From Hyphomonadaceae bacterium BL14 (lineage in GTDB: Bacteria; Pseudomonadota; Alphaproteobacteria; Caulobacterales; Maricaulaceae), in NCBI GenBank assembly GCA_027627705.1, contig CP091242.1, positions 1,183,128 to 1,247,127 of the forward strand: a DNA stretch of 64,000 bases, in the 5' to 3' direction. A program made the translations under genes and the position numbers. Positions 5,398 to 55,757 of the stretch are shown one piece after another; position 1 is the first letter of the stretch; every line of letters begins with the position of its first letter. Under the pieces are notes generated by a model. The model saw nothing but the letters and a program-made list of their open reading frames with translations, was not told where the DNA came from and made no database searches.

Positions 5398-6573
<1,176 letters not shown>

Positions 6574-8206: not shown

Positions 8207-8280
8207 TGGAGCGGGTGGACGGGATCGAACCGACATATTCAGCTTGGAAGGCTGACGTTCTACCATTGAACTACACCCGC
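8207..8280 (-). tRNA. trnG: tRNA-Gly (anticodon TCC)
   Basis: The reverse strand folds into a 74-nt cloverleaf. The acceptor stem is 8274-8280 with 8211-8217, the anticodon loop is CTTCCAA with anticodon TCC, the T-loop is GTTCGAT, and CCA is encoded at 8207-8209. Confidence 0.97.
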
Positions 8281-8341
8281 GCGGGACCGGTTTGATACAA
8301 GCTGATGGCGCGCGCGTCGAGACCTTCGGCGCCAAGCATGC

Positions 8342-9112
8342 TCAGGCGCGCGCCGTGATCGGCTGGGGTCCGGTCCAGGCCGCCAGCGTCTCGCGGTAGA
8401 GCGGATCGGGCGTGATCGACAGGGCCGCGCGCGCGCCGTCCAGCGGCAGGGCGAACAGGTCTGACAAATCCTGCACCGGCATCGGCCTGGCCGCACGCGC
8501 CATGGCGGCGGCGTTGCGCATCATGCGCCCCACAGGCCAGCTCATGATTTCCGAGCGGATGCGCAGACCCGCCATGGCCCCCAGCAAACGGGAGCCGCGC
8601 GAGCCGGTCTGCACGCCTGTGAACACCAGCAGCAGCGCCTCGCCCAGCGGATTGCGGCCATAGCCGGTGAGCACGTGGTACAAATCATGGGTCAGGCTCA
8701 TCGACCACATATAGGCGCTGAACTGCGGGTAATCGCGGTCCAGCATCTCGTAATGGCCGGGGTTTACCGCCACCGCGGCCTCGTGCACGCCCAGCGGATC
8801 GAGGCCTTCGCTATCGAGATATTGCAGATAGGCCGCCGCGAACGTGCCCGGCCCGTGGGCCTCCAGTTGCGCACGGCCGGTGAGCGCATCGGCGAGGCTC
8901 TGGCGGTTGGCGATTACGCCGCGGCCATACTCGCTGTCGCAAAAGCGCCGGAAGCTGTCTTCGCCCGTGCGCCCCTGGGCCGCCGAAAAGAAGCGGAAGA
9001 CGTGACGGGTGTCTTCAGGATCATTGATCAGATCGCGAAACGCGCCGAGCGCCGCCAGCGGCCGCAAGGGCTGGAACGGAAAGGCGCAGTCGCCGGTTGA
9101 AGACGCGGCCAT
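8342..9112 (-). CDS. Coq4-family ubiquinone biosynthesis protein
   Basis: A 256-residue protein of the Coq4 family. The diagnostic metal-binding motif HDxxH(x)11E is present exactly (HDLYHVLTGYGRNPLGE), within the helical Coq4 fold. In eukaryotes Coq4 organises the CoQ synthome and has been linked to C1 decarboxylation/hydroxylation of the CoQ ring; alphaproteobacterial homologues are thought to serve the same pathway, which is inference for this gene. It stands alone, divergent from bacterioferritin, with a perfect palindrome about 60 bp upstream of its start. Confidence 0.85.
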   Translation of the reverse strand: MAASSTGDCAFPFQPLRPLAALGAFRDLINDPEDTRHVFRFFSAAQGRTGEDSFRRFCDSEYGRGVIANRQSLADALTGRAQLEAHGPGTFAAAYLQYLDSEGLDPLGVHEAAVAVNPGHYEMLDRDYPQFSAYMWSMSLTHDLYHVLTGYGRNPLGEALLLVFTGVQTGSRGSRLLGAMAGLRIRSEIMSWPVGRMMRNAAAMARAARPMPVQDLSDLFALPLDGARAALSITPDPLYRETLAAWTGPQPITARA

Positions 9113-9170
9113 GTCGGCCTCCTTCGATGATCAGGCACGAAGCATGAGCATAACCCGGCCGGAGACAAAA

Positions 9171-9185
9171 GTGAACGCCGTTCAC
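9171..9185. promoter_or_regulatory. Perfect 15-bp palindrome, candidate operator upstream of coq4
   Basis: GTGAAC-gcc-GTTCAC lies 59 bp before the coq4 start codon in the coq4/bfr divergent region. The symmetry and length suit a TetR/GntR-type dimer. No cognate regulator is adjacent. Confidence 0.4.
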
Positions 9186-9319
9186 ATTGGCTGTGCCGCC
9201 ACGCCGCGACCGAGCGGTTCACTGGCCGCCTCAGCCTTGCCCGCGCCACCGGCTGCAAACGCGTCTCAGTTGAGGCGCGCGAATGCCTCTCAGTGACTTG
9301 TCAAATATCTTTCAATCAC

Positions 9320-9347
9320 TTGGCCGACACAGAATCGATGCTACATT
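9320..9347 (+). promoter_or_regulatory. Candidate promoter of bacterioferritin
   Basis: TTGGCC (9320-9325) and TACATT (9342-9347) are 16 nt apart, 37 nt before the ATG of bfr. Both hexamers match consensus at four of six positions. No clear Fur or Irr box was recognised. Confidence 0.33.
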
Positions 9348-9383
9348 AGCCGACAATCTGTTTTCTGAACCGGAGCCGAATCA

Positions 9384-9863
9384 ATGAAGGGCGATCCCAA
9401 GGTCATCGAGCACCTGAACAAGGCGCTGAAGCTGGAGCTGACCACGGTCAACCAGTACTTCCTGCATGCGCGCATGCTGAAAGATTGGGGCTTTTCGCGC
9501 CTGGCCAAGGTGGAATACGAAGAATCCATCGATGAGATGAAGCACGCCGATGCGCTGATCGAGCGCATCCTGTTCCTGGAAGGCCTGCCCAATGTGCAGG
9601 ATCTGGGCAAGGTGCTGATCGGCGAGACGGTCAAGGAAATCCTGGAATGCGATCTGGAGGCCGAGCGCCGCGCGCATCCGATCTACAAGGACGCCGTCGC
9701 CTATTGCGAAAGCGCCGGGGACTATGTCTCGCGCCAGCTGTTTGATTCCATCCTGAAGTCCGAGGAAGAGCATATCGACTTCCTTGAGACCCAGCTGGGC
9801 CTGATCGAGAAAATCGGCGAAGACCGCTACATGCAGTCCCAGATGGGCGGCCACGACGACTGA
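9384..9863 (+). CDS. bfr: Bacterioferritin
   Basis: A 159-residue four-helix bacterioferritin, which forms a 24-subunit shell that oxidises Fe(II) and stores ferric mineral in the cytoplasm. The dinuclear ferroxidase ligands are all in place: E18, E51, H54, E94, E127 and H130. The haem-bridging Met is at residue 52. Length is standard. It is divergent from coq4 and convergent with glutathione reductase; no bacterioferritin-associated ferredoxin gene is adjacent. Confidence 0.97.
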
Positions 9864-9902
9864 CGGGCCGCCTTCAGGCCCGCCATTCCGGCATCCCTTC
9901 AG

Positions 9903-9926
9903 GCGCGGCGGATCATTCCGCCGCGC
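9903..9926. terminator. Hairpin at the bfr/gor convergent junction
   Basis: A perfect 10-bp stem (9903-9912 with 9917-9926) with 4-nt loop overlaps the gor stop codon (9913-9915) and lies 40 nt past bfr. It could end both converging transcripts, although neither side has a strong U tract. Confidence 0.4.
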
Positions 9927-11304
9927 TCAATGTCGGATCCGTCCACTTTTCGCGCATCGTCACCAGCTCTTCGGCGACCGTGGGATGCACCGCGCAGGCC
10001 GCGTCGAACTGGGCCTTGGTGAGCTTGGCTTTCACCGCAATGCCCACTGCCTGGATGATCTCCGGCGCGTCATCGCCCACGATGTGCACGCCCACCACCA
10101 CCTGATCCTCGGCGCGGACCACCAGCTTCATCAGCATCCAGTCCGGCTTGGCGGTCAGCATCCCCTTCATCGGGCGAAACTTGCTCTTGTAGATATCGAT
10201 CTTGCCATGCGCGCGCCGCGCATCTGCCTCGCTCAGGCCCACACTGCCCACGGGCGGCTGGGTGAAGACGGCTGACGCAATATCGCTGTGGTCAAAGGCA
10301 GTAGGCCGGTCGTGAAAGACCGTCTGGACAAAGGCCATCGCCTCGCGAATTGCGACAGGCGTGAGGTTCACCCGGTTGGTCACATCGCCCACGGCGTAGA
10401 TGTGGTCAACGCTGGTGCGCGAGTATTCATCGACCTTGATCGCGCCGCTTTCCAGCACCTCGACCCCGGCCGCCTCCAGGCCCAGCCCGGCGGTATAGGG
10501 ATCGCGCCCGGTCGCCAGCACCACCGCGTCGGATTCCAGCGTGTCGCCAGTGTCCAGATGGACGGTGTGGAAGCCTTCGCGTTCAGACGGCTCGATGGAC
10601 GTGAACACCGCATGGGTGATCACACGCACGCCGCAATCTTGCAGCTGTTCATGGACGAAGGCACGCACGTCATCGTCAAACCCGCGCAGCACCGTGTCGC
10701 CGCGATAGACCAGGCAGGTTTTCACCCCCAGCCCTGCGAACACCTGGGCAAATTCGCACGCGATATACCCGCCCCCGGCGATCACCAGATGTTCGGGCAG
10801 TTTGTCGAGATGAAACAATTCATTGGACGTGATTGCATGCTCTGCGCCGGCCACGCCCTCGGGCCGGTTGGGCACCCCGCCCGTGGCGATCAGAATGGTG
10901 CGCGCCGTGACGGTGCGCCCTGATTTGACCAGGCGGATCTCGTGGGGACCGGCCAGCTCGGCGCGGTCCTCGATCAGCTCCACCCCGGCATTGGCGAGAT
11001 TCTTCGCGTAGATGCCCGACAGGCGATCCACCTCGCCCAGCATGGCATCGCGAAACACCGGCCAGTCAAACTGCGACTCGCCGATGCGCCAGCCATAGCC
11101 TTCAGCCTGCCGGAAGGTTTTGGCGAAGCCCGAGGCGTAGACCATGAATTTCTTGGGAACGCAGCCGCGGATGACGCAGGTCCCGCCCGGCCGGTATTCC
11201 TCGGCCACCGCCGTCCTGGCGCCGGACAGGCTGGCGAGGCGCGATGCGCGCACCCCGCCAGACCCGGCGCCGATGGTGAAAAGGTCGTAATCGAAATCGG
11301 CCAT
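9913..11304 (-). CDS. gor: Glutathione-disulfide reductase
   Basis: A 463-residue flavoprotein disulfide reductase that reduces GSSG with NADPH. The FAD-binding motif GAGSGGVRAS is near residue 12, the redox pair is C43 and C48 in GGTCVIRGCVPKK (the glutathione-reductase form), an NADPH-binding GGGYIACEFA follows, then ATGRDPYT and the C-terminal active-site HPTVAEE. It has its own start (ATG 11304) with no operon partner. Glutathione synthesis (gshA) is encoded later in the window. Confidence 0.95.
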   Translation of the reverse strand: MADFDYDLFTIGAGSGGVRASRLASLSGARTAVAEEYRPGGTCVIRGCVPKKFMVYASGFAKTFRQAEGYGWRIGESQFDWPVFRDAMLGEVDRLSGIYAKNLANAGVELIEDRAELAGPHEIRLVKSGRTVTARTILIATGGVPNRPEGVAGAEHAITSNELFHLDKLPEHLVIAGGGYIACEFAQVFAGLGVKTCLVYRGDTVLRGFDDDVRAFVHEQLQDCGVRVITHAVFTSIEPSEREGFHTVHLDTGDTLESDAVVLATGRDPYTAGLGLEAAGVEVLESGAIKVDEYSRTSVDHIYAVGDVTNRVNLTPVAIREAMAFVQTVFHDRPTAFDHSDIASAVFTQPPVGSVGLSEADARRAHGKIDIYKSKFRPMKGMLTAKPDWMLMKLVVRAEDQVVVGVHIVGDDAPEIIQAVGIAVKAKLTKAQFDAACAVHPTVAEELVTMREKWTDPTLSAAE

Positions 11305-46666: not shown

Positions 46667-47044
46667 ATGGCCCAGCCCAAGCCCATCGCCCATGCGCGCC
46701 GGCTAAGACGCGATCAGACCCGCTTCGAGCGGCGCCTCTGGTCGCTCCTGCGCCAGCGGCCCGAGGGGCTGAAATTCCGCCGCCAGCATCCCGCCTGCGG
46801 CTTCATCGCTGATTTCGCCTGCGTGGAGGCGCGCCTGATCATCGAGCTCGATGGCAGCCAGCACGCCGATCAGGCCGAAGCCGACGCCCGGCGCACCGCC
46901 ATCCTGGAGGCGGCTGGCTGGCAGGTGATGCGCTTCTGGAATCTGGCGCTGGACGAAGCCCCGCTCATGGCCGCCGACCACATCATTGAAACGGCGCGGA
47001 TGCGCATTCGGGCGTTTCACTGGGAGCGGCAGAGCCCGGACTGA
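46667..47044 (+). CDS. DUF559 (Vsr-like fold) protein
   Basis: A 125-residue protein with the DUF559 pattern: RRLRRDQTRFERRLWSLLR, GLKFRRQHPACGFIADFAC, LIIELDGSQHADQAEADARRTAILEAAGWQVMRFWN. The fold is related to the very-short-patch-repair endonuclease family, with the Asp and Glu of FIADF and IELDG as candidate metal ligands. Biological role unknown. It sits between REP repeats with no operon partner. Confidence 0.85.
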   Translation: MAQPKPIAHARRLRRDQTRFERRLWSLLRQRPEGLKFRRQHPACGFIADFACVEARLIIELDGSQHADQAEADARRTAILEAAGWQVMRFWNLALDEAPLMAADHIIETARMRIRAFHWERQSPD

Positions 47045-47050
47045 CCCGAG

Positions 47051-47089
47051 CCCCCTCACCTTACCTCTCCCCCATGAATGGGGGAGAGG
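47051..47089. repeat. REP-type palindrome (CCCTCACCTTACCTCTCCCC family)
   Basis: CCTCTCCCCC (47064-47073) pairs with GGGGGAGAGG (47080-47089) around a 6-nt loop, preceded by CCCCCTCACCTTA. This is an intact reference for the unit into which the casposon has inserted about 80 bp to the right. Confidence 0.75.
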
Positions 47090-47165: not shown

Positions 47166-47182
47166 CTCCCCTCCCCGAGGGG
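47166..47182. repeat. Left target-site duplication of the casposon
   Basis: CTCCCCTCCCCGAGGGG, 17 bp, identical to 55684-55700. Because G and C runs adjoin it, the true duplication may be 14-17 bp. Confidence 0.75.
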
Positions 47183-47209
47183 GGGGTATAGATAAGTCTT
47201 ACGATAATT
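47183..47209. repeat. Left terminal inverted repeat of the casposon
   Basis: Starts GGGGTATAGATAA; compared with the right end read inward, the first 13 positions are identical and positions 15-16 (TC) and 22-27 (ATAATT) match at the same offsets, 21 of 27 in all. Confidence 0.7.
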
Positions 47210-47276
47210 GCGTCCGCGGTGGTTTTGAGGAACAATTCGGCCTTTTGCTTCCGTGATCCGTTTAAGGGGGGTGCAG

Positions 47277-48209
47277 ATGGATGAAAAAGAAGCTCTGGAG
47301 GCGAAAAAACAATCAGAGGATGAGTATGCAGCGCAAATCTGGCAATGCATCAAACGCTTTCGCCATGACAGCGAGGACTCGGAATTTAGTCAGCATGGTC
47401 ACTTATTAGACGTCGTGCAAAATGCTGCAAAAAAATATGCGTTAAAAACGAATCCAGAGCTCGATGATTTAATTAATGATGTCGAAAAATTAGCGCTTGC
47501 TGTCAATATTATTTCTGGTTCTTGCAACAGCACTGATCCACTATTCTATGAACCGAACAAAACAGGTATTTTCTGGCGTCACAGACCAGATATACTATTA
47601 GATTCTATGAAATCAGCACCTCCGAATTTTTCCAAAACAGATATTGAGTATGCGGCAGAATTGTATGTGTCTCAGGATATAATTATACCAGATTTAGAAC
47701 TATTACTGATTGATATTCTCGTGGCCATGGAACTTTCGGCATTTGCGGCGCAGATGGCTCAGCCTGAAAAGTATTCTGTTGATGGCTCTAGGGAGAGCGC
47801 GCTAAAAGCCAATCATCCCGCATTGATTTTCATTATTGGGAGGACAGCCACATTGCTATTTGTTCTTATTGTTTCGGCTGTATCGATATTTTTTGGAACG
47901 ATAATAAGTGAATGGATACCAATAATATTTATTGGATTGTCTATTATTTATTTTTTAGCGGATTTATTTATTTCAATATTATCGTTGCCAGGTGCTATTT
48001 CAATGTACTACATGAGGCGAAAATCAACCTTAAAATTATTAAATTCAATGAATGCGGTCTATTTAAATATACCTTCCCATGGCCCGGTGAGTGCGGCAAA
48101 CCTGCGCAGGCTTCTAGAGCGGTCCAGTGATTTGGGAGCGTGCTGGTCGAGTATGATATTTGTAATTTTAGACAAGATGCAAAACCTTAGTTCCGTAAGG
48201 GCGACCTGA
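47277..48209 (+). CDS. Casposon cargo: membrane protein of unknown function
   Basis: A 310-residue AT-rich gene. Residues 1-185 are soluble and mostly helical and acidic; two close membrane segments follow (about 187-235: LIFIIGRTATLLFVLIVSAV and IIFIGLSIIYFLADLFISIL), then about 70 cytosolic residues. I recognise no family. The ATG at 47277 has a G-rich Shine-Dalgarno region upstream; a GTG at 47253 is also in frame. Codon use differs sharply from flanking chromosomal genes, indicating separate acquisition. It converges with the next gene. Confidence 0.7.
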   Translation: MDEKEALEAKKQSEDEYAAQIWQCIKRFRHDSEDSEFSQHGHLLDVVQNAAKKYALKTNPELDDLINDVEKLALAVNIISGSCNSTDPLFYEPNKTGIFWRHRPDILLDSMKSAPPNFSKTDIEYAAELYVSQDIIIPDLELLLIDILVAMELSAFAAQMAQPEKYSVDGSRESALKANHPALIFIIGRTATLLFVLIVSAVSIFFGTIISEWIPIIFIGLSIIYFLADLFISILSLPGAISMYYMRRKSTLKLLNSMNAVYLNIPSHGPVSAANLRRLLERSSDLGACWSSMIFVILDKMQNLSSVRAT

Positions 48210-48292
48210 GACCCTCGGCCTCTCGTTTATTGTGAGAGTCTGTCGTTGACCTCTACCTTTTGATTGCCAGAACTCTGTCTAAAATCCATTTA

Positions 48293-48982
48293 TTATCCCG
48301 GATTTTCACCAACCTCTAACAAGTATGCTTCATATGGCTCGATACATATACCAATTTCACCGAAGTGAGACTGCAGCCTAACAATCAGTTCTGCGCCAAG
48401 GCGCGCGCCGTGAAATATATTGGGTTTGATTGTATCCTCATATAAATCATCATCTTTTGGCCAAACCTGAAGGACCACTCCGCAATTGCCGTGTGAAATA
48501 TTACTTAAGTACCAGTACACAGTACGATAAAAATGCTCGGCATCGATTGAGCAAAACTGCTTGTAAATGTTAAAGTCTTTAATCGCGCCTTCCATTTCTG
48601 CTCTGTATATAATAGATTTCCGATCATTCCTGAAATTCTCAATCGTCTCATTTTCGGCATGTATAGTTAAAATCGAATTTTTATCACCTATTTTATTAAG
48701 ATGTTTTATATCATGTTCCGCATCATAACGCTGAATTGACCAATAATTATCTTTAATAACAATATTTATTATTTTTACATAATATTCAAAACACGAACGA
48801 GATATAATTTCAACGCCCCACCTTGATTTTGCGTCAAAAGCGGCGATCATTGATTTCAGCAATTCAAAAAAGATGATTGATAGTCCGGCGGCGGCACGAT
48901 CTTTTTCATGCCTTATATGCTGAGGCTGAAAATATGAAGAATCAGCCACAATTTTTTTAATCAAATCAATTTCTCTTTCCAT
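48293..48982 (-). CDS. Casposon cargo: DUF5677-like helical protein
   Basis: A 229-residue, AT-rich, largely alpha-helical protein. The segment RSCFEYYVKIINIV in the first half and YWYLSNISHGNCG in the second half resemble the DUF5677/HEPN-like group, where a conserved Ser-x-x-xHx motif could form a nuclease-like site; this resemblance is weak. No membrane segment or signal. Base composition is foreign to the chromosome. Function unknown; a defence-like role is possible but not shown. Confidence 0.6.
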   Translation of the reverse strand: MEREIDLIKKIVADSSYFQPQHIRHEKDRAAAGLSIIFFELLKSMIAAFDAKSRWGVEIISRSCFEYYVKIINIVIKDNYWSIQRYDAEHDIKHLNKIGDKNSILTIHAENETIENFRNDRKSIIYRAEMEGAIKDFNIYKQFCSIDAEHFYRTVYWYLSNISHGNCGVVLQVWPKDDDLYEDTIKPNIFHGARLGAELIVRLQSHFGEIGICIEPYEAYLLEVGENPG

Positions 48983-49029
48983 ATTCTGCTATCCGTTTCT
49001 TTGGGCGCGGGAGCCATTTTTATTTCATA

Positions 49030-49146
49030 TTAGATTTTTTGAATGCGGAATCTGAAGTGCTCGATATAATCCCTAGTGCGCCGCCGTATCTCTGCGCGGA
49101 TTACATCGTGCTCCGGACCGCTTCCTAACAGTATGAGTTTGGTCAT
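49030..49146 (-). CDS. Small open reading frame coupled to polB
   Basis: A 38-codon frame beginning MTKLILLGSGPEHDVIRAEI and ending FRFRIQKI. Its ATG overlaps the polB stop as ATGA, the usual sign of translational coupling. It is Arg-rich with no recognised domain, and runs into AT-rich DNA, so it may be the remnant of a longer gene cut by recombination. Confidence 0.45.
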   Translation of the reverse strand: MTKLILLGSGPEHDVIRAEIRRRTRDYIEHFRFRIQKI

Positions 49147-51875
49147 GCTGCTTCTCCGCTTTCCAGCTGAATTTGTACAGTGGCCGTCGGATCAAGCCGC
49201 TCCCCAAACTCCCCAACCCCGTTCGCCTCCTTACCGATCAGGATGACGTGGTCGGCCTGGACATGCCGCCTCACCGTCTCACCAGCATCCCAGCGATCCC
49301 CGTTTTCAAACTTGCTCTCAGGGCTCAGGTGATAGGTCGCTAGGGCGTCTGCATAGGTCTTGAGCGCTTCCACGGACACCGGCTCACCCGTCTCCCGGTC
49401 AAAAGCCTGCCGCGCAGCTAGCCCAGGATCGCTCTCGAATGGGGCAACCGGTTTCGGTGCCGCTTCCTTTCGGGGTCTGCCACGCTTGTTCGGGTCGGCA
49501 TTCGTATCATCGGGCATGGGCCGCTGGGTGGCCGCAAGGGCGGTGAAGCTCACCAGGAACCCGAAAGGCTTGATCTGATCGGGGTAGCTCTTGTGCGCGT
49601 TGTGCGGGTCCATCCACTTCAGGAGATGCGGACTGGTTGCGCCATAGCGCTGCGCGGCGGGTTTCGTGAGGGCGGGGTGGTAGTCCAGGCGCACCCGCTC
49701 TGGACGACCTCCCAGGGCCGCTGAGAGGATGAAGTACCAGTGATCATACTGCCAGCGAGTGACGCCGAGTTTTGACCAGGACGCGACCGGATCGGGCACG
49801 CCAGGGGCGGGGTCGGCCTCTCCGTACGGCGCTCTCAAATGCCCCAGCCCATGAGCCGACGCTTTGCGGATGACCGGGCGGCCCTCACTATCGATATTGA
49901 AAAGAGCATAGCGCTTTGCGGAAATCGCGAAGGCATATAGCGGCTGAAATTCGCCATTACCGTTCGCAGCGTAGTTCACGTCCTCCATTTGCAGGATCGA
50001 GCCCGGCTTGCGGTACGGGTTCAAAGGCTCAAACCAGGCCACAACGCGCTTTACACGGGTTTCGAATTCATCGCGGCCCATGCCTTCAGGCCGGGCGATG
50101 GCCAGGCTATCGGTATCGCAGAATGCCCATTGCAGCCCTTGGGCAAGGGTTTCACGTTCGGCCAGGGCCAGCATCAAGCGAGCGGCTCCGGTAATGAGCG
50201 TGCCCAATAGCGGGTGAAAAAACCGGCCAGGGTCTTCTAATGCGGTGCTTTGCAATAGGCCTTCAAAGCCATTGGGGCCGTAAATCTCCAAAGGTTCCGG
50301 CTTTGGCGCATTGTCGCGCTGAACCTCGATATAAATGCCATAAGAGGTCGAATTAGCGAGTATCTTGATCGCCAATTCATTGGGGTCTTTTGCCGCCTTG
50401 GCCTCATCGCGCAGGTCTATCAGGCGGGTAAAGGCGTCGCTTTCCAGCGGATCAATTGCGTATTCGGGATTTCCAAAAAGCCGAATTGCCTTCAATTCGC
50501 TTTGCGGCTTTCCGGGGTAAAAGCTGATGGCCTCGACAATGCGCGGCGTTTTACCCGTCAAAACCTTTGCCGCGATTACATCGGCCAGCGTGTACCAAAT
50601 CGCCCCGCGATAGCTGAGGTAATTGAGCCCAATGGTGTAATTTGCATGCGGGCTGGCGTCGTATTTCGCGCGGACCGGTACGAGGCCGCCATCGGGCTGG
50701 ATTTGCACCAGCGTGGTGAGCGCCTGCCATGTCTCGCGGGCCTGAAAATCCTCTCGCGTGACGCTTTCCAGAAAGGCTCGCGTTTCCTGTGTGGTGTCAG
50801 CGGACGTGAAGCCCTCAGCTATCACGAACGGCCAAAGCCCCATGAGCGCGTTGACGGTCGGATACATGGATTTGAAGTCGGTATACCGCACTTCGACCGG
50901 CACGCGCCGGATGCGCACTTCGGCGCGCCCACCATAAAAGGTGCTCATGATCAGCCCGAACATGTCGCCGGGCACGTCCTGGCAGGCCTGGAGCGGGGCA
51001 ATGCTCATTTCATCAAGATAGGCCTTTCCGATACTCGCCTCACTGATGATCTTGTGAGCCGGAACGGCCAGGGCGTGCTTTTCGTACAGGGCCGTGAGGG
51101 CCGCGTAGCACTCCCAAGTGGCCTGGACGTCATCGCGGGCATAATCGAGATAATCAGGCGTGAGCGGCCCGCCATGGGCCTCACTGGCTATCTTGCGCGT
51201 AGGCACGTCCAAGGCCGCGCACAGGCTCTCAAGTGAGTGGCTGCGCGAAGTGAGCGCCGCGCTAAGCGTTTTCACGTCCACAAAGCATCCTTTGTGGTGA
51301 TCGACCTTCAAGCCGCGCTTGCGCATGCCACGCGGGGTCGGCTGATCCCAAAAGGATGAAAACTGGATAAGGCTTGCCCGCCGGGACAGGTGCTTCACCT
51401 GGACGCGCGGACGGTTACGGCTGGCGACAAGCTGGAACGAGAACCCGCCTCGCATGCTGCCGCGTGCCGGTCCATGGTGAATGGCCACGCGCGAGATATC
51501 GAACGGCAAATTGAAGCCGGCAATGACCCCGCCGAGGTCATACCCATATTTCAAAAGCACATGCTCGCTGAAGTCGGCCAGGGTGCGCACCCGGAAACCG
51601 CGCGGCTCACAATACGTGCGAAGGTCTGTCAGCTCGTCATCGGGCAAGTAGGGCGGGTAGAACGCCCCTTCTTCGATCAGCACGCCGGATTTGCGGACTT
51701 GATAGAAGCCAACGCGAAGCGCCTGGGATGGATCGATGTTCGTCTCGGTGTCGAATACCAGGACATAAGGCGAAGGCTCATCCAGGGCCGCCCCTCGCTT
51801 TCGCTTTGCGAGGGGCTGCGAGCCGGGCTTTCGGGTGTAAGCGCGCAGCCCAATGGTATCGGGGCCGCTAGTCAT
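49143..51875 (-). CDS. Family-B DNA polymerase of the casposon
   Basis: A 910-residue polymerase with proofreading. Exo I is D42-E44 (FDTET), Exo II GFNLPFDISR (N122, D126), Exo III YARDD (Y245, D249). Polymerase motif A is D333FKSMYP, motif B K504xxxNSTSYG, motif C C586DTDS with D587 and D589, and the following KRY lies near 654-656. All catalytic residues are present, so it should be active. The about 220 C-terminal residues have no motif I recognise. The start overlaps the HNH stop (ATGA). It would replicate or repair the element; whether it is protein-primed cannot be decided from sequence reading. Confidence 0.92.
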   Translation of the reverse strand: MTSGPDTIGLRAYTRKPGSQPLAKRKRGAALDEPSPYVLVFDTETNIDPSQALRVGFYQVRKSGVLIEEGAFYPPYLPDDELTDLRTYCEPRGFRVRTLADFSEHVLLKYGYDLGGVIAGFNLPFDISRVAIHHGPARGSMRGGFSFQLVASRNRPRVQVKHLSRRASLIQFSSFWDQPTPRGMRKRGLKVDHHKGCFVDVKTLSAALTSRSHSLESLCAALDVPTRKIASEAHGGPLTPDYLDYARDDVQATWECYAALTALYEKHALAVPAHKIISEASIGKAYLDEMSIAPLQACQDVPGDMFGLIMSTFYGGRAEVRIRRVPVEVRYTDFKSMYPTVNALMGLWPFVIAEGFTSADTTQETRAFLESVTREDFQARETWQALTTLVQIQPDGGLVPVRAKYDASPHANYTIGLNYLSYRGAIWYTLADVIAAKVLTGKTPRIVEAISFYPGKPQSELKAIRLFGNPEYAIDPLESDAFTRLIDLRDEAKAAKDPNELAIKILANSTSYGIYIEVQRDNAPKPEPLEIYGPNGFEGLLQSTALEDPGRFFHPLLGTLITGAARLMLALAERETLAQGLQWAFCDTDSLAIARPEGMGRDEFETRVKRVVAWFEPLNPYRKPGSILQMEDVNYAANGNGEFQPLYAFAISAKRYALFNIDSEGRPVIRKASAHGLGHLRAPYGEADPAPGVPDPVASWSKLGVTRWQYDHWYFILSAALGGRPERVRLDYHPALTKPAAQRYGATSPHLLKWMDPHNAHKSYPDQIKPFGFLVSFTALAATQRPMPDDTNADPNKRGRPRKEAAPKPVAPFESDPGLAARQAFDRETGEPVSVEALKTYADALATYHLSPESKFENGDRWDAGETVRRHVQADHVILIGKEANGVGEFGERLDPTATVQIQLESGEAA

Positions 51876-52246
51876 TGTGCGCCCTCCGGATAGTAAGGCA
51901 GGACGTGTTCGGCTTGCTCAAGAAGCCATCGGCCAAATTCGGCCAGAGTTCCACCAATTCGGGTGAGCCATTCGGACAGAGCCAAAAGGTAACGCCCGAT
52001 GATTTCCATCGGCGGGTTCTTCGTGACCGGTGCGTAGGAAAAATCCTTTTCGGTGTCGCTTTGTTCGCGATGGCAATTGGAGCAAAGCACACCGCCGTCA
52101 TCGTGAAACTTGCGCGGAGCGATGTGCGCAAATTCCATGGCCGCCGGATGATCTGCATACCCGCATGCCAGGCAGATGGGGTTTCGGGTTCTCAGGCGGC
52201 GAAAATCCTTTTCGCGGCGTTCTTCTTCAGAGGTCGGTGTCGTCAT
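51872..52246 (-). CDS. HNH endonuclease
   Basis: A 124-residue HNH nuclease. Zinc-binding pairs C25-C28 (CLAC) and C55-C58 (CSNC) bracket the catalytic H41 (EFAHIAP), and N57-H59 complete the HNH motif. HNH nucleases are a recurrent gene in casposons. It lies between the HTH gene and polB and overlaps polB by 4 nt. Confidence 0.88.
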   Translation of the reverse strand: MTTPTSEEERREKDFRRLRTRNPICLACGYADHPAAMEFAHIAPRKFHDDGGVLCSNCHREQSDTEKDFSYAPVTKNPPMEIIGRYLLALSEWLTRIGGTLAEFGRWLLEQAEHVLPYYPEGAQ

Positions 52247-52259
52247 GGGTCAAGTTCCT

Positions 52260-52835
52260 TTAGCTGACGATTTGATAGATTTCGTGGAACGGCACTTCGT
52301 TCACGGCCGCGATGCGGTGAAGTGCGTTCGGGTCTGTTTCGAAGGGATAGAAGCGGCCGTGAATATCGGTGACGCCCTCGCCGCGAAGGTCGGCGATGAG
52401 GTCTATGTCGTTCGTGCGGGTGAACCGGCCCTGGCGATCCCAGGCGCGCCCAGCTTTCGAAGCCGGATCGAAGCCGCGAACGAAAATCTTGTGGACCTGG
52501 CCCTCGGACTGGACGCCGATACGCCGCTCGCGCGGATCGTAAATGCGCCACACCCGGCCTTTGCGGCTGACCATGTTGTGAAGTTTGAGAAAGCGCCGCA
52601 GCGCGCGCTCTGACGTGCCAGCGTCTCTGGCCGCACCGCGGAGGCTTGCTCCATCGCGCATGAAGCGGATGGCGGCTTCGATCTCACGGCTGGACTGGGG
52701 CAGGCGTCCGGCATTCGACGCCAGCGGCTCGCCTTTGCGCGGATGGCCGCGCGCCTGTGAGGGTGTCAGCCCACGGGCTAGGCCCCGCTCAACGCGGCGG
52801 CGGTACTCGGCTGCATAGTCACGAACGCGGGGCAT
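52260..52835 (-). CDS. Putative HTH DNA-binding protein of the casposon
   Basis: A 191-residue basic protein. Around residues 50-90 REIEAAIRFMRDGASLRGAARDAGTSERALRRFLK has the shape of a helix-turn-helix. The C-terminal half (VHKIFVRGFDPASKAGRAWDRQGRFTRTNDIDLI) is a compact domain I do not recognise. HTH proteins accompany polB and cas1 in known casposons and may regulate or assist transposition. First gene of the HTH-HNH-polB operon; a 7-bp-arm palindrome lies about 90 bp upstream. Confidence 0.72.
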   Translation of the reverse strand: MPRVRDYAAEYRRRVERGLARGLTPSQARGHPRKGEPLASNAGRLPQSSREIEAAIRFMRDGASLRGAARDAGTSERALRRFLKLHNMVSRKGRVWRIYDPRERRIGVQSEGQVHKIFVRGFDPASKAGRAWDRQGRFTRTNDIDLIADLRGEGVTDIHGRFYPFETDPNALHRIAAVNEVPFHEIYQIVS

Positions 52836-52925
52836 GGAACACTCTCAAGATCACCGGCGATTGTCGCGGGTGTGCTAAGAGGGTCGGGTTGCCACACTGA
52901 AAGGTCAATAAGCCCTTGAATCTAT

Positions 52926-52943
52926 TATTCTATAATTAGAATA
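52926..52943. promoter_or_regulatory. AT-rich palindrome between casposon genes
   Basis: TATTCTA-TAAT-TAGAATA is a perfect palindrome with 7-bp arms, 91 bp upstream of the HTH gene start and just past the end of the next gene. It is a candidate operator for the HTH protein, or a weak terminator. Confidence 0.35.
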
Positions 52944-52947
52944 GCAG

Positions 52948-53628
52948 CTATTTCGAATGAACCTTTTTGAATTCCAAAAGATATTTCTGAAATGTTTTAT
53001 CGCCAAAACCTCGAACGGAATTTGTATCGATCCCAAATTCGACGTTTATCGATTTGCGCATTCGCTGAATTCGGATGTGATCGGACTTTTGCCAAAAGTC
53101 GGGCTCAGATTCAGTATGAAGGGCGATGGCCCAGTTTATCGTTTCTGCATGAGAAATCGGACCTGGCCGTTTTGGCGATAAATCAAATTGCGGGTAGCGC
53201 TCGGGATTGACGATGCGAATTCGGTTGAAGGCGATGTTGTCGAGCCTCGCCTTACCTTCATGCCATTCGACGACCGGATTCTCCCAGAATGCTGGGTCAA
53301 TTCGCCTCGGCATTCGAGCGGGCGATGGCGTTACAGGGTAGCCGTACCCGTAAAGCTCCTCGTTGAAGAGTTCGTCGAGAATTCGTTCTTCAAATCGGTT
53401 ACGTAGCTCTTTTCTGAGGTTTAGATTACGTTGCACCTCAAGTGCTCCGTTGGCTATGGCGCTAAGGCCGTCCAAGAATGACTTGGGCCCCTTACCAGCA
53501 ATCTCGGGTTTCCAGGCATCCAAGGTGGCGCGTTCTGCGACTTCCTCGGCCAGAGCGAGAGTTTCCCACGCGTTTTGTAACGAAACTCCTCGCTCCCAAA
53601 GGTCTTTTGGTTTTAGAATCTCGTTCAC
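52948..53628 (-). CDS. Casposon protein of unknown function, divergent from cas1
   Basis: A 226-residue soluble protein starting (GTG) MNEILKPKDLWERGVSLQNAWETLALAEEVAERATL, helical in the first half and basic at the end. No family recognised. The gene is divergent from cas1 with only 22 bp between start codons, so their promoters and ribosome-binding sites must overlap, which suggests linked control. Base composition is intermediate between core and arms. Confidence 0.65.
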   Translation of the reverse strand: MNEILKPKDLWERGVSLQNAWETLALAEEVAERATLDAWKPEIAGKGPKSFLDGLSAIANGALEVQRNLNLRKELRNRFEERILDELFNEELYGYGYPVTPSPARMPRRIDPAFWENPVVEWHEGKARLDNIAFNRIRIVNPERYPQFDLSPKRPGPISHAETINWAIALHTESEPDFWQKSDHIRIQRMRKSINVEFGIDTNSVRGFGDKTFQKYLLEFKKVHSK

Positions 53629-53650
53629 GCGGCAATGTTCCGGGGGCTAG

Positions 53651-54742
53651 ATGAATATCCAGACACGCACGTTAGCTGAGTCTGACGCGGATGCGGAGCT
53701 ATGGGCCGAACGCTGCCAGTATTGGCAGGCCGCGCACGAAGCCTCAATCTCGATCCGCAAGCGCCGCGAGCGCCAGAGCGCGCCGCTCATGCTGACTGGC
53801 CACGGGTTATCGATCCGTGTTGATCGCGGCGCGCTCATGATCAAGGACGGGCTCACCCACTTCCCCCAGGACAAGCGCGAGCACCGCTTCTTTAAAGGCG
53901 GCCTCGATATCCCGCCGCGCATTGTCATTGTCGATGGTAATGGCGAAATCACGCTCGACGCGCTCGATTGGCTGGACTCACAAGACACCCCGCTCATTCG
54001 TCTGAGATGGGATGGCCGCATTCAATCGATCATGGGCAAGCCGCGCTACGCCAGCGATCCTGAAAAAATCGCATGGCAGAGACAGACACGCTCGATTGAA
54101 GCGGCGCGCGCCGCATTCGGGGCGGACCTGATCGCGCAGAAAATCAAAGGCACGCTCGATAATCTCGAAACCTGCTTTCCCGCCTCAGACATTCGCGGGC
54201 GCGCCATGGCGTGCGCAGAAGAAGCGCTGACGATTCTTGAGCGCAGCCCGCCGCAAACCGTGTCTGAATTGCTTGGCTTAGAGGGCAAAGTCTCGCGGGC
54301 ATACTTCCGGACATGGCGCACAACGCCGATCCGCTGGAAAGCACGCGATCAGAACGCGATCCCGCAAGATTGGATGACCTACCAATCACGCTCATCGCTC
54401 CGGGCGAAAAAAGTCCCCAGCAACCGGCGGGCAACGCATCCGGTCAACGCGATGCTGAATTACGCCTATGGCATGCTCGAAATCCGCACCCGCATCGCGA
54501 TCATCGCAGACGGCTTTGATCCCACAATCGGGATTGTTCATGGTGACACGCGCGCAGATCGCGATACATTCGTGTTCGACCGTATGGAGCCGGGCAGGCC
54601 GGAAGCTGAGCGGCGGGTGCTGGCCTTACTCAACGAGCATGAATTCAGCACCAAGGATTTTGGCGTGAGTGAGAACGGGACGTGCAGGATCAACCCGCAA
54701 GCGTGTCAGCTTCTAGGATTAGATGCACAGGTGCTGCGGTAA
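53651..54742 (+). CDS. cas1: Stand-alone Cas1 endonuclease/integrase (casposase)
   Basis: A 363-residue Cas1. The N-terminal beta-domain reads LTGHGLSIRVDRGALMIKDG and IPPRIVIVDGNGEITLDALDWL (about residues 48-108). The helical catalytic domain contains E211 (LLGLEGKVSRAYF), H297 (GIVHGDTRADRDT) and D310 (FVFDRMEPGRP). The H-to-D spacing of 13 is the same as in E. coli Cas1, and NAMLNYAYGMLEIRTRIAIIADGFDP is a classical Cas1 segment. An extra N-terminal helix of about 45 residues is present. No cas2, other cas gene or repeat array is nearby, so the likely role is transposon integration rather than CRISPR adaptation. Confidence 0.93.
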   Translation: MNIQTRTLAESDADAELWAERCQYWQAAHEASISIRKRRERQSAPLMLTGHGLSIRVDRGALMIKDGLTHFPQDKREHRFFKGGLDIPPRIVIVDGNGEITLDALDWLDSQDTPLIRLRWDGRIQSIMGKPRYASDPEKIAWQRQTRSIEAARAAFGADLIAQKIKGTLDNLETCFPASDIRGRAMACAEEALTILERSPPQTVSELLGLEGKVSRAYFRTWRTTPIRWKARDQNAIPQDWMTYQSRSSLRAKKVPSNRRATHPVNAMLNYAYGMLEIRTRIAIIADGFDPTIGIVHGDTRADRDTFVFDRMEPGRPEAERRVLALLNEHEFSTKDFGVSENGTCRINPQACQLLGLDAQVLR

Positions 54743-54782
54743 TGATCCGTTCTGAATTTCACGCTCATCACGGAGCCCCTGC

Positions 54783-55007
54783 ATGATCCGCCAATCTCTC
54801 ATAGCCCCCGGGTTGCTGGCGTCCGCATGCGGTGGTGCACCCGAAAGCGCGTGGCCAGCACGTGAAGATGGAGCGCTTCGCATCGCTGCCTGGAATATCG
54901 AGCATCTCACCGCTAAGCTTGGGGCGAGCAAAATTTCTCTATCCTGTAGTGAATTTAATGTATGTTATATTGGTTTAAATTTCAGATCCCCTGATCTGGG
55001 TTATTAA
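54783..55007 (+). pseudogene. Truncated endonuclease/exonuclease/phosphatase-family lipoprotein gene
   Basis: A 74-codon frame. The first about 48 residues are GC-rich and look like the start of an EEP-family lipoprotein: signal SLIAPGLLASAC with lipobox, then LRIAAWNIEHLTA, the first EEP motif. After LTAKLGA the sequence turns abruptly AT-rich and unrelated, so more than 200 residues of the domain are missing. The breakpoint is near 54,925, marking a recombination joint inside the casposon. Confidence 0.65.
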
Positions 55008-55008
55008 A

Positions 55009-55593
55009 ATGAAAGATAAGGAAAGTCGAATTGAGGTTCTTCATTGGATAGCTACTTTTGTAGCAATATTTGCTGTCGGTTTGACGGCCTTCCAAGTGAG
55101 CCAGACCTTCCGTGTTTTGCGCGAAGGTCAAGTTATTGCCTCAATTGCGGCCTCGTGTTCAGAGCATATCGCAATAACTTCGCGCATAAACCGTCGCTTA
55201 ACAAGCGCAGCTTCCAGGTTTCATTCAGCGCGCGCTTCAGAAAATTTACAAGTTGCTCTAGAATTGAGCGCCAGAGACGGAGAGCAGCTTTTTCAAATAT
55301 TTAATGAGGTGGCGCACCCAACATATAGTCAATTAGTTATATTTTCAAAAGACTCTGATCGCGCCGAATTGGGTCAATGGTGGAATTCATACAGAGAGAG
55401 TTTTTATAATTTACAGAGAATTAATGGAATATTTATTATTCAAGTGGAGGCGATGGGTATAAGATCGACAGTGGCCACATCTGATCTTTTGGGTGTGGGT
55501 TCATATGATGATGAAATTGATGAATCTGCAACAATTATGCATCAATATACAGGGTTTATATATGACTACTGTAGGCGATCTGTGGCGATATAG
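55009..55593 (+). CDS. Casposon cargo: single-helix membrane protein of unknown function
   Basis: A 194-residue AT-rich gene. One membrane segment (VLHWIATFVAIFAVGLTAFQV, residues 10-30) is followed by a helical soluble domain with scattered Ser and charged residues. I do not recognise the family; the layout resembles small membrane-anchored proteins of unknown role often found in accessory islands. It starts on an ATG with A-rich upstream sequence. It is the last gene before the right terminal repeat. Confidence 0.62.
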   Translation: MKDKESRIEVLHWIATFVAIFAVGLTAFQVSQTFRVLREGQVIASIAASCSEHIAITSRINRRLTSAASRFHSARASENLQVALELSARDGEQLFQIFNEVAHPTYSQLVIFSKDSDRAELGQWWNSYRESFYNLQRINGIFIIQVEAMGIRSTVATSDLLGVGSYDDEIDESATIMHQYTGFIYDYCRRSVAI

Positions 55594-55656
55594 AGCCTTT
55601 TTGTTGTGCGCGCTAACGATTTTCCAATTAGATTGCGATTTATTTTAAGCGCCCAA

Positions 55657-55683
55657 AATTATTTCCGGATTTATCTATACCCC
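55657..55683. repeat. Right terminal inverted repeat of the casposon
   Basis: Read inward from the right end it starts GGGGTATAGATAA and matches the left end at 21 of 27 positions. Confidence 0.7.
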
Positions 55684-55757
55684 CTCCCCTCCCCGAGGGG
55701 AGAGGTAAGGTGAGGGGTGTGCGGCGGCCCAGCCAGACGCGGCTGCGCCAGATGTAG
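55684..55757. repeat. Right target-site duplication and remaining half of the interrupted REP unit
   Basis: Positions 55684-55700 repeat the left TSD exactly. They are followed by AGAGGTAAGGTGAGGGG and a CAGCCAGACGCGG segment also seen at 46584-46596, showing that this is the distal half of a REP unit whose proximal half lies at 47163-47182. Confidence 0.72.

What the first reader, a model, noticed from the sequence alone, without database searches (positions are those of the whole stretch)
47183..55683. A bacterial casposon with intact Cas1, family-B polymerase, HNH and putative HTH genes
A solo Cas1, a PolB, an HNH nuclease and a putative HTH protein lie together in an 8.5-kb segment with terminal inverted repeats and a flanking direct repeat, and without cas2, interference genes or CRISPR repeats. 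Casposons are best known from archaea; from memory, few bacterial examples were described, one in Henriciella (same broad group), so this copy would be a useful new and apparently complete member.
Basis: partly seen in the sequence, partly recalled or inferred. Interest (0 to 1): 0.97.

Follow-up and report, generated by a model that had tools for sequence, protein, structure and literature searches.

The report
Bacterial casposon that targets DNA hairpins
A complete-looking Cas1-encoding transposon (a casposon) sits in this bacterium's chromosome between two copies of part of a hairpin-forming repeat, and 24 of 28 related elements compared also sit in hairpins, so its Cas1 is predicted to seek palindromes, which would give a natural link to the palindromic repeats of CRISPR immunity.

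Summary
The finding holds. Window 47183-55683 is an 8,501-bp casposon: solo Cas1 (nearest solved structure: the Methanosarcina mazei casposase), family-B DNA polymerase, HNH nuclease, HTH-like protein and a further conserved protein (orf226), bounded by GGGGTATAGATAA inverted ends and a perfect 17-bp target duplication. A same-genus genome keeps the empty site, with the 17 bp present once. The genome has one Cas1 and no Cas2 hit.

Of 28 related elements with both ends and a duplication, 24 lie in a stem of at least 7 bp centred on the duplication, against 2.9% of random host positions. The stems differ between hosts (REP-like repeats, terminator-like hairpins), while the element end GGG(G)TATAG is shared. 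Two deep-branching or distant elements (L071, L118) lack it.

Bacterial casposons are also commoner than the passages I read suggest (21 of 398 genomes of the order match), and often carry anti-phage genes: the largest cargo frame matches a defence model in 10 of 19 elements, against 1 of 19 host frames.

I read it as a new variant of a known kind: a bacterial casposon lineage predicted to integrate at palindromes. Activity is untested.

The parts
47166..47182 (+). left copy of the 17-bp target-site duplication CTCCCCTCCCCGAGGGG; these are 17 of the 25 bp of the hairpin CCTCTCCCCTCCCCGAGGGGAGAGG of the empty site
47183..47195 (+). left terminal inverted repeat GGGGTATAGATAA; weaker similarity for a further ~15 bp
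   Evidence: shared end GGG(G)TATAG in relatives
47253..48209 (+). cargo ORF, 318 aa, no family over a cut-off; no match in the related loci compared
48293..48982 (-). cargo ORF, 229 aa, DUF5677 (PF18928)
   Evidence: E 5.7e-12
49143..51875 (-). family-B DNA polymerase, 910 aa
51872..52246 (-). HNH nuclease, 124 aa (CxxC...CxxCH motif by eye)
   Evidence: below cut-off; PHROG HNH, E 2e-8
52260..52835 (-). HTH-like protein, 191 aa, conserved next to HNH and PolB
   Evidence: HTH assigned by eye
52948..53628 (-). orf226, conserved gene between HTH and cas1; predicted helical N-terminus, beta part and possibly winged-helix C-terminus
53651..54742 (+). solo Cas1 (casposase), 363 aa
54743..55008 (+). 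stretch without a long frame; one frame, open over part of it, reads by eye like the start of an endonuclease/exonuclease/phosphatase protein: possible gene remnant
55009..55593 (+). cargo ORF, 194 aa, no family over a cut-off
55671..55683 (-). right terminal inverted repeat (TTATCTATACCCC on + strand)
55684..55700 (+). right copy of the 17-bp target-site duplication

Best explanation
This is an 8,501-bp casposon lying between two copies of a 17-bp stretch of a hairpin-forming intergenic repeat, where its Cas1 is predicted to have joined the GGGGTATAG ends to the two strands on either side of the hairpin's tip, so that repair would have duplicated the 17 bp. Shown: gene content, ends, duplication, empty site in a relative, no Cas2 hit in the genome, Cas1 placement among bacterial casposases, and hairpin targets in 24 of 28 related elements. 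Inferred: Cas1 acts as a tetrameric integrase with a roughly 14-17 bp stagger, as the M. mazei enzyme does with 14 bp; PolB copies the element; HNH, the HTH-like protein and orf226 help to choose or process the target; the dyad of the target (as sequence or as extruded hairpin) is what is recognised. Cargo genes, often anti-phage systems in relatives, would pay for the ride.
For: Ends and 17-bp duplication; empty site in G012 and G001; one Cas1, no Cas2 hit in the genome; best solved match of Cas1 is 6opm (E 4e-20), the M. mazei casposase structure of PMC6977970, whose casposon end, TATATCCC-3', resembles the CTATACCCC-3' ends here and whose symmetrised target works as well as the natural one; trees; PolB fold; Cas1, PolB, HNH and HTH all matched in 37 of 80 related loci; stem of at least 7 bp at 24 of 28 duplications against 2.9% of 10,000 host positions, and at 18 of 20 against 3.7% of 6,000 intergenic positions; at loci with one end only, 8 of 18 against 2.2% (11 of 18 against 7.0% for 6 bp; the copy beside the element keeps only one full arm); one genome with two casposons of different end types, both in a CTCCCG-type hairpin; a 1.9-kb decayed derivative in G012 with its own hairpin duplication.
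Against: No activity, excision or circle was tested. Four of 28 targets lack a stem of 7 bp: L054 and L086 (inside the clade), L071 and L118. Of 18 one-ended loci, 10 lack it, among them four whose GGGGTATAG-like end shows no palindrome at all (L077, L081, L082, L093; these ends are themselves unverified). Close copies of the 38-bp target repeat were not found elsewhere in the window genome (up to 3 mismatches), so in this genome it is a diverged repeat. The boundary between target G and element G is fixed by an empty site only for the window element. The end repeat is short (13 bp perfect) beside the 25-602 bp given for the first casposons. The elements are related, so the binomial overstates the evidence.
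Confidence: 0.8

Rival explanations
1. Casposon, but the target is read as sequence (C-rich then G-rich, roughly CCCC-N10-GGGG) rather than as a dyad or hairpin; the palindrome is a by-product of symmetric end joining.
For: Many targets have C-runs and G-runs in the arms, and the element end itself begins with G4, so G-runs could match.
Against: L065 (CCTGCGCAAGCAGG) and L058 (CGCCCGTTCGGGCG) have no C4/G4 in the duplication, yet their stems are 9 and 12 bp and extend beyond it; five targets look by eye like whole intrinsic terminators.
Confidence: 0.2
2. No targeting: insertions survive only between genes, and intergenic DNA is rich in terminators and REP repeats.
For: Published family 3 casposons lie between genes, and hairpins are somewhat commoner in intergenic DNA here (3.7% against 2.9% of positions).
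Against: 18 of 20 against 3.7% in the intergenic control; with centres allowed within 4 bases, the best stem lies within 2 bases of the middle of the duplication in 19 of 20.
Confidence: 0.04
3. The hairpins belong to the element's own ends, not to the target.
For: A hairpin flanks both ends in most scored cases.
Against: Empty sites in G012 and G001 hold the hairpin without the element; hairpins differ between elements while the ends are conserved.
Confidence: 0.01
4. An immobile or domesticated casposon, kept for its cargo or as a fossil.
For: Single copy; among the other 40 genomes, an intact casposase in 3 (G009, G029, G034) and broken or partial ones in 2 (G012, G006); a possible gene remnant after cas1.
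Against: All core frames open, ends and duplication perfect, absent from the same site in two same-genus genomes.
Confidence: 0.15

Closest known systems
Family 3 (bacterial) casposons: Henriciella marina HenMar-C1, Nitrosomonas sp. AL212 NitAL212-C1, Streptomyces albulus StrAlb-C1, Ca. Acetothermum AceAut-C1 (Krupovic 2014, PMC4046053, passages read)
   Same: Bacterial host, solo Cas1 without added domains (as in HenMar-C1), PolB, HNH, HTH gene, inverted ends, target duplication; intergenic insertion is reported for family 3 (PMC6614799, passages).
   Different: Those four sequences were not retrieved, so direct kinship is inferred. The hairpin target is not described in the passages I read. 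The slot between HTH and cas1 holds orf226 here and in 21 of 39 related loci.
Family 2 casposons of Methanosarcina mazei and Aciduliprofundum boonei
   Same: Cas1 integrase, PolB, HNH, HTH genes; duplications of 14-15 bp (PMC6977970, PMC6614799, passages); similar end, TATATCCC-3' in M. mazei.
   Different: They target tRNA-gene 3' ends. A. boonei Cas1 is said to recognise the palindrome of the T-psi-C loop beside the duplication (PMC9939771, passage); here the palindrome is centred on the duplication. Family 2 Cas1 has a fused C-terminal HTH; this Cas1 (363 aa) has no matched C-terminal domain.
CRISPR adaptation module (Cas1-Cas2)
   Same: A Cas1 enzyme; an often partly palindromic repeat duplicated around each insert (PMC6452270, passages).
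   Different: No Cas2 hit in the genome, the insert is a whole transposon, the duplication is 12-17 bp instead of 25-50 bp (PMC6977970, passage).
Insertion sequences that use REP elements as targets (PMC1525189, title and abstract start in the listing only)
   Same: Insertion into repetitive extragenic palindromes.
   Different: Those are insertion sequences with their own transposases (recalled), not Cas1 elements.

Membership tests
Casposon | Cas1 not associated with CRISPR, with the active-site positions kept | tested here: met
   One Cas1 and no Cas2 hit in the genome; E211, H297, D310, E313 invariant in 25 homologues; that these match the catalytic residues is recalled and fits the 6opm alignment
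Casposon | Family-B DNA polymerase gene in the element | tested here: met
Casposon | Terminal inverted repeats | tested here: met
   13 bp perfect, weaker beyond; shorter than the 25-602 bp reported in PMC4046053
Casposon | Target-site duplication | tested here: met
   17 bp perfect; single in the empty site
Casposon | Cas1-driven transposition | not testable with these tools
   needs an integration assay; indirect sign: site empty in relatives
Family 3 casposons | Cas1 in the bacterial casposase clade, apart from CRISPR Cas1 | tested here: met
   100/98 clade, 96/95 split from the rows taken as CRISPR Cas1
Family 3 casposons | Groups with the four published members | not tested
   their sequences were not retrieved; Nitrosomonas (L114) and Streptomyces (L111) loci are in the tree
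Family 3 casposons | HNH gene and conserved HTH gene | tested here: met
   HNH by PHROG profile; the HTH-like gene conserved in position, its HTH nature by eye only
CRISPR-Cas | cas2 with cas1 | tested here: not met

The most novel reading that the evidence does not exclude
Bacterial casposases of this branch seek palindromes, so that casposons turn a host hairpin into repeat-insert-repeat units, including neighbours that share a single hairpin, and CRISPR's palindromic repeats descend from such duplicated hairpin targets rather than from casposon ends.
Probability: 0.25. Interest if true: 0.93.

Novelty: new variant of a known kind. Interest (0 to 1): 0.82.

Why it matters
It has been proposed that the first CRISPR repeats came from either the casposon's inverted ends or its duplicated target (PMC6452270, passages); the passages I read name no casposon whose duplicated target is itself a palindrome. 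Here is a bacterial lineage whose duplicated target is a hairpin in 24 of 28 elements scored, in hosts of several alphaproteobacterial families and at least one gammaproteobacterial genome (L060). That makes the 'duplicated target' idea testable with a small purified protein and short DNA, and offers bacterial casposases, with defined ends and targets, as tools. The frequent defence cargo suggests that these elements also move anti-phage systems between bacteria.

Tried and rejected

Twenty-four of the 28 pairs were chosen by the end motif and four (L068, L071, L087, L118) by inverted repeat plus duplication; none by palindromy. Several G-handle regions turned out to be the same contigs as named loci and were not counted twice.

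Papers not held: Beguin 2016, Krupovic 2017, and a DOI given from memory for Krupovic 2016. Supplementary figures of Krupovic 2014 were not seen and may show palindromic duplications in the published bacterial elements.
Full report
WHAT IS THERE. The window is part of a complete 3.03-Mb genome (G000:C1:1183128-1247127). At 47183-55683 lies an 8,501-bp insert of mixed base composition (39.7% G+C in the left cargo part, 58.6% in the core, 43.8% in the right part, 65-68% in the host flanks). Its ends are GGGGTATAGATAA inverted repeats, and it is flanked by the direct repeat CTCCCCTCCCCGAGGGG. In same-genus genome G012, the left flank (89.6% identity over 521 aligned positions) and the right flank (94.2% over 86) align to one unbroken stretch of L041 and overlap by exactly these 17 bases (5593-5609). 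A second same-genus genome, G001, also lacks the insert.

GENES. Core, read leftwards from cas1: Cas1 (+), then orf226, an HTH-like protein, HNH nuclease and PolB, all on the - strand. Cas1 matches Pfam Cas_Cas1 (E 1e-27), and its best solved match is 6opm (E 4e-20), the M. mazei casposase structure (PMC6977970). PolB has no Pfam or NCBIfam hit, but its AlphaFold2 model (pLDDT 88) matches family-B polymerases over most of its length. Of the 80 loci kept from a scan of species-level genomes (104 stretches encode a relative; the weak tail includes archaeal Cas1s of unknown kind), 37 show Cas1, PolB, HNH and HTH together; many of the others are short contigs. Of 39 loci with a readable gap between HTH and cas1, 11 have an orf226 relative by single-sequence search and 21 after two profile rounds that include the hits themselves. 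In others the slot holds a gene of 190-373 aa on the other strand; several begin with what looks by eye like an HTH and continue helically, recalling the published second HTH protein with HEAT repeats. In three (L066, L067, L113) no frame of 100 aa was found there. The orf226 model is confident (pLDDT 92) but has no clear fold match; its C-terminus may be a winged helix.

NOT A CRISPR SYSTEM. There is one Cas1 in the genome and no Cas2 hit (7 of 14 control genomes rang). In a 45-row tree the window Cas1 pairs with Alkalicaulis satelles (100/99) inside a bacterial casposase clade (100/98), with the M. mazei casposase as weakly supported sister (87/74) and the rows taken as CRISPR Cas1 beyond a 96/95 split. 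Five archaeal rows without a PolB match branch between; I do not know whether they are CRISPR or casposon Cas1. Long branches meet in that tree, among the CRISPR rows.

THE TARGET IS A HAIRPIN. The empty site reads CCTCTCCCCTCCCCGAGGGGAGAGG, a stem-loop. The sequence that adjoins it on the right (query from 55701) has four further diverged copies in this genome (80-88% identity over 40-59 bases), a related hairpin lies 75 bp upstream (47064-47089), and several copies lie in the G012 locus; a close copy of the whole 38-bp repeat was not found elsewhere in the window genome. The same kind of target recurs across the lineage. In 28 elements whose two ends could be placed by the end motif (24) or by inverted repeat plus duplication (4), 24 have a stem of at least 7 bp, at most one mismatch, centred within 4 bases of the middle of the duplication; 2.9% of 10,000 random host positions do (binomial 1.8e-33, which ignores relatedness). 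For the first 20 elements the figure was 18, with 3.7% of 6,000 intergenic positions. Exceptions: L054 and L086 have imperfect dyads; L071 (Microvirga) and L118 have none. Of 18 loci with one end only, where the copy beside the element keeps one full arm, 8 reach 7 bp against 2.2% of random positions, and 11 reach 6 bp against 7.0%; four (L077, L081, L082, L093) show nothing. The targets differ: by eye five look like intrinsic terminators with a T-run on the cas1 side (L055, L056, L057, L058, L067), others like REP-type repeats (L070, L075, L080). The ends are alike: GGG(G)TATAG, or GGGGATAAGG in a sister type. One genome (G520) holds one of each type, both in a CTCCCG-type hairpin. If four Gs are given to the element, as the window's empty site shows, the duplications are 14-17 bp for the first 20 and 12-17 bp for all 28, near the 14-15 bp of known casposases.

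REPEAT-INSERT-REPEAT. A search for a hairpin-sized gap between two outward-facing ends rang in 2 of 27 genomes (G043 and G058). For G043 the neighbouring element is a remnant without Cas1 or PolB in the next 19.9 kb. G012 carries a 1.9-kb decayed derivative at another site, with its own hairpin duplication.

HOW IT MAY WORK. The M. mazei enzyme works as a clamp-like tetramer that holds a 14-bp target between two dimers, joins an end that reads TATATCCC-3', and accepts a symmetrised target as well as the natural one (PMC6977970, passages). The ends here, CTATACCCC-3', are alike. I infer the same reaction, with the two joints placed on either side of the tip of a dyad. Whether the enzyme reads the symmetric sequence, a bent or extruded hairpin, or is guided by the HTH, HNH or orf226 proteins is open. 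A target centred on a dyad would suit a symmetric enzyme without the one-sided leader that A. boonei casposase needs.

HOW COMMON, AND WHAT IT CARRIES. 4 of 385 genomes drawn from the class, the window's own included, match at E 1e-40 or better, and 10 at 1e-20; the weaker six are probably CRISPR Cas1 (not checked). 21 of 398 of the order match at 1e-50 or better, broken copies included. Cargo differs from element to element. The largest cargo frame of each of 19 elements was scanned: 10 match a PADLOC model of known or candidate defence proteins at E 1e-10 or better, among them Septu PtuA, Lamassu LmuB, type I and type IIG restriction enzymes and PD-Lambda-4. Of the largest frame in the host DNA beside each of the same 19 (some may be spurious frames), 1 does, as an RTasPolA model. 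The window element's own cargo has no defence hit.

WHAT IS IN PRINT. Searches for casposon with palindrome, hairpin, terminator or REP, casposase with palindrome, family 3 and defence cargo, and the passages read, did not show a hairpin rule for bacterial casposons. They do report family 3 insertion between genes, the T-psi-C palindrome next to the A. boonei target, and the idea that CRISPR repeats may stem from a duplicated target. I read passages only, no whole paper; subscription papers and supplements were not seen.

Noticed in passing
L042 (G012:C1:1511000-1530000), about 8270-10200: 1.9-kb internally deleted casposon with a broken cas1, intact ends and its own hairpin duplication, in a same-genus genome.
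   Followed up: partly
L095 and L098 (Robiginitomaculum MAG Faavne_M6_B16): Two contigs share the same junction of the PolB C-terminal part to the Cas1 C-terminal part at 96% identity: looks like a non-autonomous derivative that multiplied.
   Followed up: partly
L138 (Bradyrhizobium sp. 2S1 plasmid pBsp2S1b): An unannotated, apparently broken casposase-like piece on a conjugative plasmid.
   Followed up: no
cargo of L051, L052, L055, L056, L059, L063, L075, L080, L084, L086: Casposon cargo matching anti-phage defence models (10 of 19 elements tested, 1 of 19 host controls).
   Followed up: partly
slot between HTH and cas1 in 39 loci: Often either orf226 (- strand) or an unrelated gene of 190-373 aa on the + strand (several HTH-like with helical tail, by eye) occupies the same slot, as if interchangeable.
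   Followed up: partly
window 46667-47044: DUF559 / MTES_1575 endonuclease-like gene beside the insertion; its DNA is also in the empty-site relative G012, so it is host DNA.
   Followed up: no
window 54743-55008: Possible remnant of an exonuclease/endonuclease/phosphatase gene just after cas1, where base composition drops.
   Followed up: no
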